The position numbers were made by a program, and so were the translations under genes. Below the pieces are notes generated by a model, which was not told where the DNA came from, did no database searches, and was given only the letters and a program-made list of their open reading frames with translations. Below, in pieces: positions 5,588 through 47,524 of a DNA stretch of 64,000 bases. The stretch lies in assembly GCF_009720385.1 (NCBI RefSeq), contig NZ_WARX01000006.1, forward strand, positions 434,001 through 498,000, read 5' to 3'. The stretch comes from Catellatospora vulcania (GTDB taxonomy: Bacteria; Actinomycetota; Actinomycetes; Mycobacteriales; Micromonosporaceae). Position 1 is the first letter of the stretch. Every line of letters starts with the position of its first letter.

Positions 5588-6532
5588 ATGGCGGGCATGA
5601 CGATCGCGGGGGTGTACGCGGAATTCGCCGCGTCGGAGGCGCGCGGGGTGTCGCCCGCGTACGAGCGACTCGGCTGGGCCGTCAGCCGGGACGAGGACGT
5701 GCCGGCCCTGCTCGGCACACTGCCGGAGCCGAAACGGCAGCCGCAGCTGCTGTTCGGCGTCGTCCGCCTCCTCGGCGGGCCGGTGGCGGATCCGGCCGCG
5801 TTCATCGCCTTCACCGTCGAGAACTGGCCCGCGATCGCGGCCGAGCTGACGGCCCGGGCCACCCAGACCAACGAGGCCGGGCGGTGCGCGGTGCTGCTGC
5901 CGGTGCTCGCAGCGCTGCCCCAGCCACTGGCCCTGCTGGAGGTCGGCGCATCCGCCGGGCTGTGCCTCTACCCCGACCGTTACACCTACCGCTACGGCGA
6001 GCACCTGCTGGGCTCGGACGGCCCGGTGCTCGACTGCGCGATCACCGGCGCGACACCGCCGGACCGGCTGCCGGAGGTCGTGTGGCGGGCCGGCATCGAC
6101 CTGAACCCGCTCGACGTCACCGATCCGGCGGACGTCGCCTGGCTCGACGCGCTCATCTGGCCCGAGCACACGCACCGTCGCGAGCGGCTGCGCGCCGCGG
6201 CGGCCGTCGCCGCGGCCGATCCGCCGCTGCTGGTACGCGGTGACCTGAACGACGCCCTGCCCGCGCTCGCGGCACAGGCCCCGTCCGGCGCGACCCTGGT
6301 GGTGTTCCACACGTCCGTGCTGTACCAGGTGCCCGCCCCGCAGCAGGCGAGGTTCGTCGACCTGGTGCGTGACCTGCCCGGTCACTGGGTCTCGAACGAC
6401 ACGACCGACCTGCTGCCCGCCCACGCGGTGCCGCCGACGCCGGACGGTGCGGCGTACAACCTGCTCGCGCTCGACGGCAGACCGCTGGCCTGGACCCGCT
6501 CGCACGGCCAGGCGATGACCTGGCTCGCCTGA
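5588..6532 (+). CDS. DUF2332 family protein
   Basis: About 314 residues, soluble. The layout fits DUF2332: GVSPAYERLGWAVSRD, then EAGRCAVLLPVLAALP, LLEVGASAGLCLYPDRYTY, the basic RRERLRAAA segment, and the C-terminal VVFHTSVLYQVP. The LLEVGASAGL motif resembles the SAM-binding loop of Rossmann methyltransferases, but catalysis is unproven. Start: ATG 5588 lies 7 bases after a G-rich stretch; ATG 5597 is possible. It is monocistronic between a hairpin and a broken gene. Confidence 0.75.
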   Translation: MAGMTIAGVYAEFAASEARGVSPAYERLGWAVSRDEDVPALLGTLPEPKRQPQLLFGVVRLLGGPVADPAAFIAFTVENWPAIAAELTARATQTNEAGRCAVLLPVLAALPQPLALLEVGASAGLCLYPDRYTYRYGEHLLGSDGPVLDCAITGATPPDRLPEVVWRAGIDLNPLDVTDPADVAWLDALIWPEHTHRRERLRAAAAVAAADPPLLVRGDLNDALPALAAQAPSGATLVVFHTSVLYQVPAPQQARFVDLVRDLPGHWVSNDTTDLLPAHAVPPTPDGAAYNLLALDGRPLAWTRSHGQAMTWLA

Positions 6533-41830: not shown

Positions 41831-41834
<4 letters not shown>

Positions 41835-44800
41835 GCACCGCCACCCCGGCCCAGCACGGCATGTGGCTGACCGAGCGCCTCGGTCTGGCCGCCACGGCCT
41901 ACCACATGCCGCTGCCGGTATGGCTCGACGGCCCGCTCGACCCGGCCCGGCTCGCGGACGCGTGCGCGGCGGCGGTCGCCCGGCACCCGGTGCTGTCGTG
42001 CGCGTTCACCGAGCAGGACGGCGAACTGCAGACCGCCCCGGCGGCCCGGACGCCGTCGCTGCGGCTGAGCGCGGCTCCGGACGACCTGGCGGCGTTCGTC
42101 CGGGAGCGCACGCTCGCGCCGTTCGACCTGGCCGCCGGGCCGCTGATCCGCTTCGACCTGGTGCCCGCGGGTCCTGGGCGGCACCTGCTACTGATCGTCG
42201 CGCACCACCTCGTCTTCGACGGCGAGTCGAAGGAGATCCTGCTCGCCGACCTCGCGGCCGCCTACTCCACCCCGCCTCCCGCACCCCGGGATCCCGCGCC
42301 CGGCGCGGGCCGCACCGAAGCAGGGCCTGCGGTTTCGGGGAAACCGCAGCAGTCCCGCACCGAATTCCTGCACCTTCCTCGAAACTGGCCGAATCCTGCG
42401 GCGAGGCAGGACGGTGTGGCGGGCGGTGTCGGGGAGGAGGGGTGGAGTGGTGAGGTGATGGTGCGGGCGGTGGAGCATTGGGCGGGGTTTCGGGCGCCGG
42501 GTGAGCCGAGCTTGCCGGGACTGCGCGGGGTCAGCGCCGCGGGTGCGCGGCCGGGCGTTGCCGTGCCGTTCGACCTGGACGCGGTGGCGGTCCGGGCGGC
42601 CGCCGCGGAGCTGGGCGCGACGACGTTCGAGGTGGTGCTCGCCGGGCTGCTGACGCTGCTGGACCGCTACGGCGACCCGGCGCCCACGGTCGGCGTCGAC
42701 CTCGGCACCCGGCCCGCCGACGGCCACGACCGGGTCGGGCTGCACGTCAACGAACTGCCGATCGGCATACCCGCGACCGGCCCGGCGGACCCGGTCACCG
42801 TCCGCGAACGCGTCGCGGCCGTACGGCACACGCTGCGGGAGACGTATCCGCTGCGTGCCGTGCCGCTGTCGCGGGCCGTGTCCGGCCTCGCCCCGCGCGC
42901 CGCGCTCACCCCGGTGTCGATCAGCTACCGCCGCCGGGCCCGGCCCGCGCCGGTGTTCGCCGGGCTCGACGCGCGGGTCGAGTGGACGGCATTCCACCAC
43001 GCCGCCCGCAACGCCCTGCACGTCCAGCTGCTCGACGACCCCGCCGCGGCGGACCTGCCCGTGCTGCTGCACGTCGACCCGGCCCGGCTGGACCCCGCCG
43101 ACGCCGCCAGGGTCGGCGCGCACCTGCGTACCCTGCTCGACGGCTTCGCCCGCCAGCCCGACGCGCCGCTGCACGACCTCGACCTGCTCGATCCGTCCGA
43201 ACACGAGCTGCTCGCCACCTGGAACGACACCGGCCGGGCCGTTCCCGGGCCGCAGGCGCTGCACGAGCTCGTCGGCGCGGCGATCGCGGCCCGACCCGAC
43301 GCCGTCGCGGTGGTCGCCGCCGACAGCGCGATGACATACGCCCAGCTCGACGCCGAGGCCGCCGCGGTCGCGGCACAGCTGCGCGGGCGCGGGATCGGCC
43401 CCGGCGACCTGGTCGCGGTGTGCCTGCCCCGCACCTCGCGGCTGCTGCCCGCGCTGCTCGGCGTCCTGCGCACCGGCGCGGCCTACCTGCCGCTGGACCC
43501 TGAGCACCCGCCGGCCCGACGCGACGGCCTGCTCGCCGACGCGGGCCCGGCGGCGGTGCTGACGGCCGACGCCGACGGGTCGACCGTGCTCGCCGAGACC
43601 ACGCCGCCGATCCCCGGCGACCCGGCCATGCCGCCGACCGTCGGTGATCCGGCCACGCCGTCGCGGCACGAACCCGGGCTCTGTTACGTGATCTACACGT
43701 CCGGTTCGACCGGGCGGCCCAAGGGTGTGGCGGTGGAGCATCGCGCCGTGGTGAACCTGCTGCACGCGCTGCCGGACGTCGTGCCGACCGGCCCGGGGGA
43801 CGTGTGGCTGGCCGTGGCGTCGGCGGCGTTCGACATGTCGGTGCCGGAGTTGTGGCTGCCGCTGGTCACCGGCGGCACGGTCGTGCTGGCCACCGCCGAG
43901 CAGGCGCGCGACGGCGAGCTGCTGCTGAAACTGCTGCGCCTGACCGGGGCCACCCACGCGCACCTGACCCCGTCGACGTGGCGGCGGCTGCTCGACGCCG
44001 GTTTCGCCGAGCGCGGCGTGGTCGCGGTGTGCGGGGCCGAGGCGCTGCCCGCCCCGCTCGCCGCCGAGCTGCGGTCGCAGACGTCGCGCCTGGTCAACCT
44101 GTACGGCCCGACCGAGACGACGGTGTGGTCCACCGCCGCCGACCTCACCGGGGGCGGTCCGGTGACCATCGGCCGCCCGCTGGCCAACACGACGGCGTAC
44201 GTCCTGGACGCGGCACTGCGGCCGGTGCCGCACGGCATCGTGGGCGAGCTGTGCCTGGGCGGGGCCGGGGTCGCCCGGGGTTACCTGGGCCGCCCCGAGC
44301 TGACCGCGGACCGGTTCGTGGACACGGCCTGGGGGCGGCTCTACCGCACCGGTGACCGGGTGCGCCGGCTGCCCGACGGGTCGCTGGAGTTCCACGGGCG
44401 GATCGACGACCAGCTGAAGGTGCGCGGGCACCGGATCGAGCCGGGGGAGGTCGAGGCGTTCCTGCGGGCGGCCGAGTCGGTAGTGGACGCGGCGGTGACC
44501 GTGTCCGCGGACGGGGACGCGCTGGTCGCGTACGTCGTCGGCGCACCCGATCCGGCCCGGCTGCGCGAGCAGCTCGCGGCGGGACTGCCCGGATACCTGG
44601 TGCCGTCGGTGTTCCTGCTGGTCGAACAGTTGCCGCGCAACGCCAACGGCAAGCTGGACCGGGCCGCGCTCGCCGGGCTGGCCGGCGCGCCGCTGGTGCC
44701 GCAGGCGTCGCCGCGGCCCTACACGGGGCTGGCGCTGCAGGTGTACGAGATCTGGCGGGAGGTGCTCGGGCACGGCGAGATCGGGCCCGACGACGACCTG

Positions 44801-44938
44801 TTCGATCTCGGCGGCCACTCGCTCACCGTCACGAAGATCGCCGCCCGGTTGCGCCGCAGGCTCGGCGTGGACCTGCCGCTGCACGTCTTCTTCGACACGC
44901 CCACCATCAACGGCATCGTCGCCGCCGCGGACCGGTGA
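41831..44938 (+). CDS. NRPS C-A-PCP
   Basis: 1035 residues. Condensation domain (1-450) with HHLVFDG (125-131) intact but carrying an inserted 20-residue palindromic element at residues 167-186. Adenylation domain (about 480-940): A3 VIYTSGSTGRPKGV, A4 ASAAFDMSVPELW, A5 NLYGPTETTVW, A10 NANGKLDRAAL. My hand-read pocket is D-M-P-H-V-G-L-V-W-K, which does not match a code I know. Carrier LGGHS (Ser about 997), and the protein ends without thioesterase. The ATG overlaps the previous stop (ATGA). Confidence 0.9.
42329..42388. repeat. 60-bp nested palindromic element in NRPS condensation domain, copy 1
   Basis: Three 20-base parts: arm 1 (42329-42348), itself a 9-bp hairpin GCGGTTTCGGGGAAACCGCA; centre (42349-42368); arm 2 (42369-42388), a degraded inverse of arm 1. 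Its length and start on codon 167 keep the reading frame, adding AVSGKPQQSRTEFLHLPRNW. A copy in reverse orientation lies at 45799-45858. Confidence 0.75.
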
Positions 44939-45798: not shown

Positions 45799-45858
45799 AC
45801 GCAGTTTCGGGGAAACTGCATGAAAAGCGGCGGCGGTTCGTGCGGTTTCCCCGAAACT
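45799..45858. repeat. 60-bp nested palindromic element, intergenic copy 2
   Basis: Two hairpin arms, GCAGTTTCGGGGAAACTGCA (45799-45818) and its inverse (45839-45858, TGCGGTTTCCCCGAAACTGC), flank a 20-base centre. Compared in reverse orientation with copy 1, arm 1 matches 19 of 20 bases and arm 2 matches 16 of 20, while the centre is diverged. It lies between a lipoprotein gene and the 3' end of an ankyrin-type gene, 16 bases from the latter's stop. Confidence 0.75.
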
Positions 45859-45874
45859 GCAAGCCGGTTGGGGG

Positions 45875-47524
45875 TCAGGGGCGGGCGGCGGCGTGGCGGT
45901 CGTGCCAGAGGCGGACGAGGAAGGTGAGGTCGTCGCGGCGGGCGTGGCCTGCGGCGACGCTGCCGGGGCAGGCGCCGTGGACCGTTTCGGCGAGCGGGTC
46001 GGCGCCTGCGTCGAGCAGGGCGCGGATCAGCGGCACGTCGCCGCCGTTCATCACGGCGACGTACAGCGGGGTGCGGCCGATACGGTCGGGCACGTCCACG
46101 GGCAGACCTGCGGCGTCCAGCAGGGGGAGCAGCCGCGCGTGGTCGACCCACATCGCCATGTGCCGCAGCGACCAGCCGCCGCCGTCGCGCATCAGCGGAT
46201 CGACCACGCCCCGGGCCAGGCCGTCGAGCAGCCACCGCGTGTCGCCGTCGAGCATGCGCTCGCGTACCCGGGTGCGTTGGGCGGCCAGGGCTCTGGGCAG
46301 CCGCCCGTCGCCGGTCAGCCAGGTGTCGCGTACCGCGAAGCAGCCCGCGCTCGCCCCGCCCATGGCCCGCAGGGCCTGCTCGCGGCGCAGCTCGTCGGCG
46401 TCGTGGTCGGGCAGCCGCAGCGCCCCGTCCCGTACGCCCACCACGTGCCACTCGCCCCGGCAGCGCACCCGGACCGGCGTGCCGGGCTCACCGTCGGCCG
46501 GCACGACCGGCGACTCGCGGACGGGCCGCGCGGCGGGCGGCGGCAGGGCCGGGAACAGCGCGGCGCGCAGCAGCGGGTGCAGGTCGTCCGGGGTCAGCAG
46601 CCCGGCGTGCAGCAGGGCGAGGTCGGCCGGGACCGGCCCGCTCGCGACCTGCGGCGGGCCCTCGTTGTATTCGTGCGGGTCCGATTCCGCGGCCACGAGC
46701 TCGTCGCCGACGCTGACGTTGAGATGTGCCCCGAACAGCGTGTCCACCCGTTCGGCCGGAAATCGCGAGCGCTGGGCGAACGCCGCGGCCGCGGCCCGGA
46801 TCTCGGTGGCGAGCCCGACCGGGCAGGTCGGCGCGGCGCAGTCGCGCTGCAGGGCCTTCGTCTCGGTGAACGGAACCTCGATGCCGCAGGTCTGCCAGGC
46901 GGCGGCGTACTCGCCCGCGGCCAGCATCAGGTAGACGCGCTCGGTCGCGGCCGCGGCGTCCTCGCCGACGCCCAGCGCGGACCAGGCCAGCGGGGAGCCG
47001 TCGGGCGCGAGCAGCGGCGGCCGGTCTGCCGAGCAGCCCCACGCGGCACGCAGCGCCGCGGTCTCGCGCACGTCCCAGGTGTGCCGCGGTGCCAGGTACC
47101 AGCGGTGGTCGGCGAGCCGGCTCAGCGTCACGACGTCGAGGCGCAGCCGCTGCGGGCCGGTCGGGGACAGCGGCAGGCGTACCCGGATCAGCGGGCTGCC
47201 GTGGTCGGCGGCTCGCGGCGCGAGCACCGCGCTGGTGCGGGCCCGCAGCGAGGTCATGCCGCCCTGGTGCCGGGGCAGGTGCCAGTGCAGCAGGTCCAGG
47301 GCCAGGTGGCGCAGATCGTCGGCGACGGCCTCGGCGGCGTCCACGCCGAACCGGTCCCGGACGGCGTCGAGGTCCAGGTCGACGTCGGTGTCCGCGAGGG
47401 CCGCGGCCGCGCGCCAGTCACCGGCCGCGCGGGCGTCCGCCGCCGCGGCGATGGCGGCGGGGGAGGGCATGCGGGCGCGGATGCGCCGCCACTGCGTCAG
47501 GTCGGGCCGCAGCAGCGTGATCAT
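45875..47524 (-). CDS. Ankyrin-repeat protein
   Basis: 549 residues. A long N-terminal region, MITLLRPDLTQWRRIRARMP, then RLDVVTLSRLADHRWYLAPR and WGCSADRPPLLAPDGSPLAW, has no family I know. The C-terminal part carries about two or three ankyrin units, including GWSLRHMAMWVDHARLLPLL and GRTPLYVAVMNGGDVPLIRA. It may be protein-interaction or regulatory. ATG 47524 lies 28 bases downstream of the tRNA-like sequence. Confidence 0.72.
   Translation of the reverse strand: MITLLRPDLTQWRRIRARMPSPAAIAAAADARAAGDWRAAAALADTDVDLDLDAVRDRFGVDAAEAVADDLRHLALDLLHWHLPRHQGGMTSLRARTSAVLAPRAADHGSPLIRVRLPLSPTGPQRLRLDVVTLSRLADHRWYLAPRHTWDVRETAALRAAWGCSADRPPLLAPDGSPLAWSALGVGEDAAAATERVYLMLAAGEYAAAWQTCGIEVPFTETKALQRDCAAPTCPVGLATEIRAAAAAFAQRSRFPAERVDTLFGAHLNVSVGDELVAAESDPHEYNEGPPQVASGPVPADLALLHAGLLTPDDLHPLLRAALFPALPPPAARPVRESPVVPADGEPGTPVRVRCRGEWHVVGVRDGALRLPDHDADELRREQALRAMGGASAGCFAVRDTWLTGDGRLPRALAAQRTRVRERMLDGDTRWLLDGLARGVVDPLMRDGGGWSLRHMAMWVDHARLLPLLDAAGLPVDVPDRIGRTPLYVAVMNGGDVPLIRALLDAGADPLAETVHGACPGSVAAGHARRDDLTFLVRLWHDRHAAARP

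What the first reader, a model, noticed from the sequence alone, without database searches (positions are those of the whole stretch)
42329..42388. 60-bp palindromic element translated in frame inside an NRPS condensation domain
A nested palindrome of three 20-base parts, starting exactly at a codon boundary and 60 bases long, adds 20 residues to a condensation domain 36 residues after its HHxxxDG motif. The same element occurs intergenically at 45799-45858. Arm 1 is 19/20 identical in inverse orientation and the total length is the same. This resembles Rickettsia palindromic elements, which insert into genes while preserving the frame. I know of no such report for NRPS genes.
Basis: partly seen in the sequence, partly recalled or inferred. 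Interest (0 to 1): 0.75.

Follow-up and report, generated by a model that had tools for sequence, protein, structure and literature searches.

The report
Hopping hairpin DNA inside protein genes
A 60-letter mirror-image DNA element that is scattered through the genomes of the soil bacterium Catellatospora, usually just after genes, has also got into protein-coding genes without breaking them, and its two ends stay largely unchanged even there, which suggests that the DNA or RNA hairpin itself does a job.

Summary
42329-42388 is a 60-bp element of two inverted 19-bp arms, 41 bp apart start to start, read in frame inside an NRPS condensation domain. It is one of about 76 copies in this Catellatospora genome; all 11 held genomes of the genus carry the family. 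Most own copies (56 of 75) lie within 60 bp after a stop codon. Six of 75 own copies and 5 of 91 in named stretches lie wholly inside open frames, in all three frames, in linker-like stretches. The NRPS copy is in 1 of 11 orthologues; AlkA, a carboxylase, CbiG, ComEC and a second NRPS show presence or absence between species. No clear target duplication was found; 5 of 11 genomes, among them the three richest in arms, lack a Y1 (RAYT-type) transposase. The arms look constrained as nucleic acid: in coding copies arm differences are flat over codon positions while the centre drifts. The same core geometry, with compensatory changes in the pooled set, occurs in two other groups of the order. The comparison with Rickettsia palindromic elements fits the behaviour, but this is a shorter, separate family. 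Movement and function are inferred. Novelty: new variant of a known kind.

The parts
42329..42388 (+). In-frame 60-bp palindromic element inside the NRPS condensation domain (residues 167-186)
   Evidence: absent from the orthologue in 10 of 10 other genus genomes
42329..42347 (+). Arm 1, intact (GCGGTTTCGGGGAAACCGC)
42348..42369 (.). Centre, 22 nt, variable between copies
42370..42388 (-). Arm 2, degenerate (4 mismatches of 19), inverted
41831..44938 (+). Host gene: NRPS module, condensation - AMP-binding - carrier domains
45801..45860 (+). Second copy, intergenic, both arms intact; 14 nt beyond the stop codon of the minus-strand gene at 45875-47524

Best explanation
It is one copy of a dispersed 60-bp hairpin element of Catellatospora. 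Shown: the unit is two 19-bp arms around TTCGGGGAA / TTCCCCGAA, inverted and 41 bp apart, with sharp edges; orthologous sites differ in occupancy between close species; it sits mostly within 60 bp after a stop codon, with convergent gene pairs enriched; and it lies in frame in linker-like stretches of proteins in all three frames, at places where some orthologues lack it. It can be tolerated there because 60 bp is 20 codons, the idealised unit has no stop in any of six frames, and no clear target duplication is added. Inferred: it spreads by copying through an unknown enzyme acting in trans, possibly on a single-strand hairpin. At its usual sites the symmetric hairpin marks or protects the 3' ends of both neighbouring transcripts (bidirectional termination or end protection); inside translated genes that activity is suppressed or harmless. 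The NRPS copy is a passenger in a naturally variable linker.
For: Copies and spread: 60+64 arm hits, control 0; 76 sites taken from the listing; 11 of 11 genus genomes, one single hit among 90 others. Geometry: partner at exactly 41 bp for 138 of 142 arms in G000 and 177 of 178 in named stretches. Sharp edges: same-genome copies at unrelated sites match at up to 20 of 22 centre bases with unrelated flanks. Usual site: of 75 own copies 27 convergent, 34 tandem, 7 divergent, 6 inside genes, 1 partial; of the 61 convergent or tandem ones 56 are within 60 nt of a stop, median 24; convergent enriched (27 of 68 v 51 of 318 element-free gaps), divergent depleted (7 of 68 v 92 of 318), 30 of 34 tandem copies nearer the stop than the next start. 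Turnover: 21 occupied and 34 empty of 55 scored site-by-genome pairs; G003 and G010 disagree at 9 of 14 sites that both could be scored for and at least one has. In-frame copies missing from some orthologues: NRPS, AlkA, carboxylase alpha, CbiG, ComEC, second NRPS. Arms inside genes: differences 8/13/8 % by codon position against 8/4/23 % in flanks and 36/50/45 % in the centre. Idealised unit open in six frames. Hairpin in relatives: covariation score 0.239 against 0.102 in shuffles, 0 of 500 as high; 0.051-0.088 with partners slid.
Against: No transposase or donor was found and no movement was observed. No T-run follows the element (0 of 88 transcript-sense 3' flanks with 4 or more T in 8 nt), so it is not a classical intrinsic terminator. 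Within Catellatospora neither hairpin reading shows covariation beyond shuffles, and a fixed 22-nt centre is not needed for a simple RNA hairpin. In the relatives one of five measures is not clear of shuffles (pairs with a change on both sides 10 v 8.2, 43 of 500 as high). Some coding copies decay (carboxylase of G004, 12 mismatches; CbiG of G003, 8; arm 2 of the NRPS copy). The codon-position test used pairs that are not independent, only copies with 9 mismatches or fewer, and skipped poorly alignable flanks. Small excesses of 4-nt and 6-nt flanking matches remain unexplained.
Confidence: 0.72

Rival explanations
1. A binding site for a sequence-specific DNA protein (chromosome organiser or roadblock) that needs two odd palindromes on the same face of the helix, about four turns apart; copies inside genes are simply further binding sites.
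For: Arms conserved at sequence level in all contexts while the centre drifts but keeps its length: 138 of 142 partners at 41 bp; arms 745 of 798 and centre 300 of 462 identical at occupied orthologous sites; flat codon-position pattern.
Against: In the pooled set from other genera the bases next to the cores change in a compensatory way, as for a base-paired hairpin and not as expected for a protein reading double-stranded DNA. 3'-end bias. Turnover between close species. No candidate protein was looked for beyond the Y1 family.
Confidence: 0.3
2. REP/BIME-type element mobilised by a RAYT (TnpA-REP) HUH transposase.
For: Inverted palindromes placed after genes and no clear target duplication, as in REP pairs (recalled).
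Against: The Y1_Tnp family PF01797 has no match in 5 of 11 genus genomes: G000, G002 and the three richest in arm hits, G005, G008, G009.
Confidence: 0.07
3. Palindromes kept symmetric by a mutational process (quasi-palindrome correction by template switching), with no selection or function.
For: The compensatory changes in the other genera could arise so.
Against: In Catellatospora the centre is not kept symmetric (50.6 % of its cells paired), while the arms keep one particular sequence over many sites, which symmetry repair alone cannot do.
Confidence: 0.1
4. Ordinary coding sequence: a linker of the NRPS that resembles the element by chance.
For: The linker is naturally variable (39-86 residues between DG and HW in 11 orthologues), and arm 2 is degenerate.
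Against: Arm 1 is perfect, spacing and total length are those of the family, the copy scores E 6.9e-10 in the genome search, and ten other in-frame copies exist.
Confidence: 0.02

Closest known systems
Rickettsia palindromic elements (RPE) and other protein-coding palindromic repeats
   Same: Dispersed palindromic repeat, intergenic and also in frame inside conserved protein genes, lineage-specific.
   Different: 60 bp against 105-146 bp (PMC2229807, section 9 read); fixed two-arm geometry; a high-GC actinomycete; three frames used; usual site just after stop codons; arms look constrained inside genes, whereas RPE copies are said to lose repeat identity with time (PMC6649704, passages read).
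REP / BIME elements of enterobacteria and pseudomonads (recalled)
   Same: Pairs of inverted palindromes at the 3' side of genes, no clear target duplication.
   Different: No Y1 transposase in 5 of 11 genus genomes; one invariant spacing; in-frame genic copies.
Small MITEs with open frames (ERIC/IRU, Correia 107 bp, YPAL)
   Same: Short non-autonomous repeats that can fuse in frame to genes (PMC2229807, passages read).
   Different: Shorter, no clear target duplication, a whole-length palindrome rather than terminal inverted repeats.
Spaced palindromic motif families between convergent genes of other bacteria
   Same: PMC5217627 (two passages read) reports motif pairs such as CCTAC(N)19TAGGT (57 copies, 18 between convergent genes) and GCTTAT(N)5AAGCG (114 copies, 44 convergent, 5 in genes).
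   Different: Other sequences and spacings, other bacteria; in the passages seen no in-frame insertion or comparison of orthologous sites.

Membership tests
Protein-coding palindromic repeats of the RPE type | Palindromic repeat present both between and in frame within genes | tested here: met
   11 of 166 copies wholly inside open frames
Protein-coding palindromic repeats of the RPE type | Genic copy absent from orthologues of relatives | tested here: met
   for four of the eleven host genes not examined, and for DUF5682 present in both genomes examined
Protein-coding palindromic repeats of the RPE type | Sequence kinship with a described RPE family | not tested
   RPE sequences were not fetched; lengths differ (60 v 105-146 bp)
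Protein-coding palindromic repeats of the RPE type | Insert is translated and the enzyme stays active | not testable with these tools
   needs proteomics or enzyme assay
REP/BIME with RAYT | Cognate Y1 (HUH) transposase in the genomes that carry many copies | tested here: not met
   no match in G000, G002, G005, G008, G009
REP/BIME with RAYT | Inverted pairs of palindromes placed after genes | tested here: met
MITE | Target-site duplication | tested here: not met
   166 copies: exact flanking repeats of 3-9 nt near chance; excesses only at 4 nt (2 v 0.66 and 5 v 2.3 expected) and one 6-nt match (v 0.075); two of the identity windows reach z 2.4 and 2.8
MITE | Parent transposon sharing the ends | not tested
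Intrinsic terminator | Stable hairpin after the stop codon | tested here: met
   mean MFE -37.9 kcal/mol (61 copies) v -26.6 (101 other post-stop windows, 14 % of which are as low)
Intrinsic terminator | Run of T after the hairpin | tested here: not met
   0 of 88 with 4 or more T in 8 nt

The most novel reading that the evidence does not exclude
An order-wide class of structured chromosomal site with fixed geometry (TTCGGGGAA - 32 nt - TTCCCCGAA, compensatory changes around the cores). It is maintained by selection as nucleic acid wherever it lies, even when it hops into the coding sequence of enzymes in any of three frames, so that a recognition system unrelated to translation writes peptides into proteins such as NRPSs.
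Probability: 0.3. Interest if true: 0.82.

Novelty: new variant of a known kind. Interest (0 to 1): 0.64.

Why it matters
The best described in-frame palindromic repeats are those of Rickettsia, and the review read here adds cases from enterobacteria, Neisseria and Yersinia; genic copies are presented as tolerated inserts, and RPEs as losing their repeat identity. Here an actinomycete genus has them in enzymes of primary metabolism and in NRPSs, with arms that look constrained as nucleic acid inside genes. Two close species differ at 9 of 14 sites, so both the mode of movement and the function can be tested by comparing strains.

Tried and rejected
RAYT mobilisation: rejected as the general mechanism, because PF01797 is absent from 5 of 11 genus genomes, including the three richest in arms. 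Target duplication: no clear one. Rfam, three loci only (L018, L128, L133): no family at the element; two matches elsewhere in L128 lie below the gathering score and are taken as chance. Classical intrinsic terminator: no T-run. Covariation within Catellatospora: not above shuffles for three hairpins or one long hairpin; seen only in the pooled relatives. Those were found by a pattern that fixes the cores and their spacing, so the 18 core columns say nothing and the spacing outside Catellatospora was not tested freely. Literature: the arm sequences searched for are in none of the held papers; searches on Catellatospora and repeats, RPEs, dispersed palindromic repeats with Actinobacteria, convergent-gene palindromes and bidirectional terminators listed no title or abstract start that describes this element. 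Seen beyond listings: passages of PMC2229807 and its section 9, passages of PMC6649704, two passages of PMC5217627. The 2002 RPE paper is not held. Structure prediction was not run: its rule does not cover proteins from genome-search loci, and the window protein alone would give a weak model.

Full report
Observation. The bases 42329-42388 hold an intact 19-bp arm (GCGGTTTCGGGGAAACCGC), 22 nt of centre and a degenerate inverted arm (4 of 19 mismatches), 60 bp in all. They lie in frame in the gene 41831-44938, an NRPS module with condensation, AMP-binding and carrier domains. The second copy is at 45801-45860 with both arms intact. Shuffles give 0.13 expected matches in the window against 6 found, three arms each counted on both strands.

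A repeat family. The genome (8.83 Mb, 36 contigs) has 60 forward and 64 reverse arm hits at <=1 mismatch and none for the reversed control pattern. A sequence model gave 155 matches over both strands, from whose listing I took 76 sites; only 150 first-look candidates were scored, so weaker copies may be missing. The 11 held genomes of the genus have 40-465 arm hits each; of 90 genomes of other genera in the family and order one has a single hit. Named records show that the genus is Catellatospora: of 78 stretches with both arms 77 are Catellatospora and one is Verrucosispora sioxanthis.

Anatomy. I counted 75 own copies with both arms and, after removing duplicates, 91 in the named stretches (one of them Verrucosispora). 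Of arms with <=2 mismatches, 138 of 142 own and 177 of 178 named have an inverted partner at exactly 41 bp; one own arm has it at 40, and 3 and 1 are alone. The named copies were selected by exact arms, so their arm identity is not a measurement. An idealised 60-mer that I wrote from the copies of KI3 and C. tritici is a perfect palindrome, open in all six frames; 79 of 148 intergenic copies and 5 of 11 genic ones are open in all six, against 52 of 296 neighbouring 60-mers. Similarity stops at the edges of the unit: copies at unrelated sites of one genome agree at up to 20 of 22 centre bases with unrelated flanks. No clear target duplication was seen; there are small excesses (4-nt matches 2 v 0.66 and 5 v 2.3 expected, one 6-nt match v 0.075, two identity windows at z 2.4 and 2.8).

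Usual site. With a home-made gene caller (coding fraction 0.91 in the window), 75 own copies fall 27 between convergent genes, 34 in tandem gaps, 7 in divergent gaps, 6 wholly inside genes and 1 partly; the 91 named copies fall 30, 47, 3, 5 and 2, with 4 at edges. The median distance to the nearest stop codon is 24 nt for 61 own and 41 nt for 77 named copies; 56 of 61 and 56 of 77 are within 60 nt. Against 318 element-free gaps of >=30 bp in the same stretches, convergent gaps are enriched (27 of 68 v 51 of 318, p 4e-5) and divergent gaps depleted (7 of 68 v 92 of 318, p 0.001); 30 of 34 tandem copies are nearer the stop than the next start.

Copies inside genes. Eleven copies lie wholly in open frames, in all three frames. 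The hosts are two NRPSs, a biotin-dependent acyl-CoA carboxylase alpha chain (next to and splitting its Biotin_carb_C match), CbiG, a PucR regulator, ComEC, Ada/AlkA, a family-2 glycosyltransferase, a DUF5682 protein, its downstream neighbour, and one protein without a Pfam match. Orthologues: the NRPS of the finding has the element in 1 of 11 genomes. AlkA has it in 2 of 11 (G002, G007). The carboxylase has it in 5 of 11, with a decayed copy in G004 (12 mismatches) and none in G001, G005, G006, G008, G009. CbiG has it in 6 of 7 genomes examined, with 2-8 mismatches (not G006). ComEC has it in 3 of 8. DUF5682 has it in both genomes examined, G005 and G009 (three rows, two from one genome). The second NRPS has it in 6 of 8, two of those with 5-6 mismatches. 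PucR, the glycosyltransferase, L132 and the second gene of L155 were not compared. By eye the sites are linkers or loops rich in Ala, Pro, Gly or Ser or variable in length; this was not tested on structures. Lengths vary there for other reasons too, so exact empty sites inside genes cannot be fixed to the base.

Turnover. For 32 intergenic sites drawn at random from 61 eligible ones, an orthologous gene end was found 55 times in G003 and G010 (9 of 64 not found); 21 are occupied and 34 empty. Mismatch counts are 0-4 when occupied and 15-20 when empty, with nothing between. G003 and G010, 95 and 97 % alike in two coding samples, disagree at 9 of 14 sites where both could be scored and at least one is occupied. 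Synteny downstream was not checked throughout; L162 in G010 seems to have a different neighbour. By eye some empty sites keep remnants, such as L160 and L205 in G010.

Constraint on the arms. At occupied orthologous sites arms are 745 of 798 identical and centres 300 of 462. Occupancy was itself defined by arm similarity, but the gap between 4 and 15 mismatches makes this bias small. Some low-identity centres could mean independent insertions at one site. In coding copies of five genes arm differences by codon position are 31/398, 53/416 and 34/402, against 268/3420, 141/3420 and 778/3420 in conserved flanks and 87/242, 111/224 and 108/238 in the centre. The third-position excess typical of protein constraint is absent from the arms. 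The pairs are not independent, copies with more than 9 mismatches were left out (G004 in the carboxylase), and flank pairs of low protein identity were skipped.

Beyond the genus. The model finds matches in 61 of 300 family genomes, 7 of 44 genera, 11 of the 61 being Catellatospora. Loci from four genomes of genus g4 (unnamed; Micromonospora is my inference) show a diverged form, often with TGCCTC...GAGGCA in the centre. A pattern of the two cores alone, TTCGGGGAA N32 TTCCCCGAA, hits 31 of 397 genomes of the order with control counts of 0: G000 (59), 22 of genus g4 (1-10 each) and 8 of a further family, f16 (1-2 each). That is 59 places outside Catellatospora, of which 53 were listed; I aligned 52, leaving out one identical row. 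On these the long hairpin has 90.5 % paired cells (shuffles 82.8) and a covariation score of 0.239 against 0.102 +- 0.009 (0 of 500 as high), and 0.051-0.088 with partners slid; further pair types 29 v 23.7 (3 of 500), pairs with a change on both sides 10 v 8.2 (43 of 500). The core columns are fixed by the search, so the signal comes from the inner pairs; several rows are close relatives, which shuffles do not correct for; g4 and f16 were pooled. Of 26 rows of context two repeat others and one is from G000; of the remaining 23, 15 are convergent, 5 tandem, 2 divergent and 1 overlaps a predicted gene (caller trained on Catellatospora). Within Catellatospora no such covariation is seen.

Mechanism. 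Shown: dispersal, difference in occupancy between close species, in-frame presence where some orthologues lack it, and a nucleic-acid-like pattern of constraint. Inferred: mobility by an enzyme acting in trans, and a role of the symmetric hairpin at the 3' ends of both neighbouring genes. Against a classical terminator is the lack of any T-run (0 of 88). Against RAYT is the absence of Y1_Tnp from the richest genomes. A duplex binding site remains the main rival, because the centre keeps its length while its sequence drifts.

Comparison. In behaviour it matches Rickettsia palindromic elements (PMC2229807, section 9 and passages). It differs in length, geometry, host, usual site and in keeping its arms. 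Sequence kinship was not tested, so I do not file it as an RPE. Palindromic motif families between convergent genes are reported from other bacteria (PMC5217627, two passages). Novelty: a new variant of the known kind of protein-coding palindromic repeat, with an unexpected link to hairpin sites elsewhere in the order.

Noticed in passing
L336 and L305 (G003), empty orthologous sites of L198 and L218: A different palindrome, GGATCTAGATGAGTTGTGGTC...GACCACAACTCATCTAGATC, sits after the stop codon where G000 has this element; a second 3'-end palindrome family that may replace it.
   Followed up: partly
L142:5437-5496: A copy with perfect arms in Verrucosispora sioxanthis between a convergent pair, beside a gene that looks like pdxT (name recalled); either transfer or an old shared copy.
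   Followed up: partly
L198 near 4001 (G000:C3:355509): Extra partial arm repeats (GCAGTTTCCC twice) in tandem next to the element.
   Followed up: no
window 42268-42460: The linker after HHxxxDG of this condensation domain varies from 39 to 86 residues among 11 orthologues while both sides are highly conserved.
   Followed up: partly
L155:4327-4386 and 6117-6176: Two consecutive genes (DUF5682/VWA protein and its neighbour) each carry an in-frame copy in the same frame.
   Followed up: partly
G001, G003, G004, G006, G007, G010: Y1_Tnp genes are present in 6 of 11 Catellatospora genomes, with a stop inside the match in G003 and G006; they do not track copy number of this element.
   Followed up: partly
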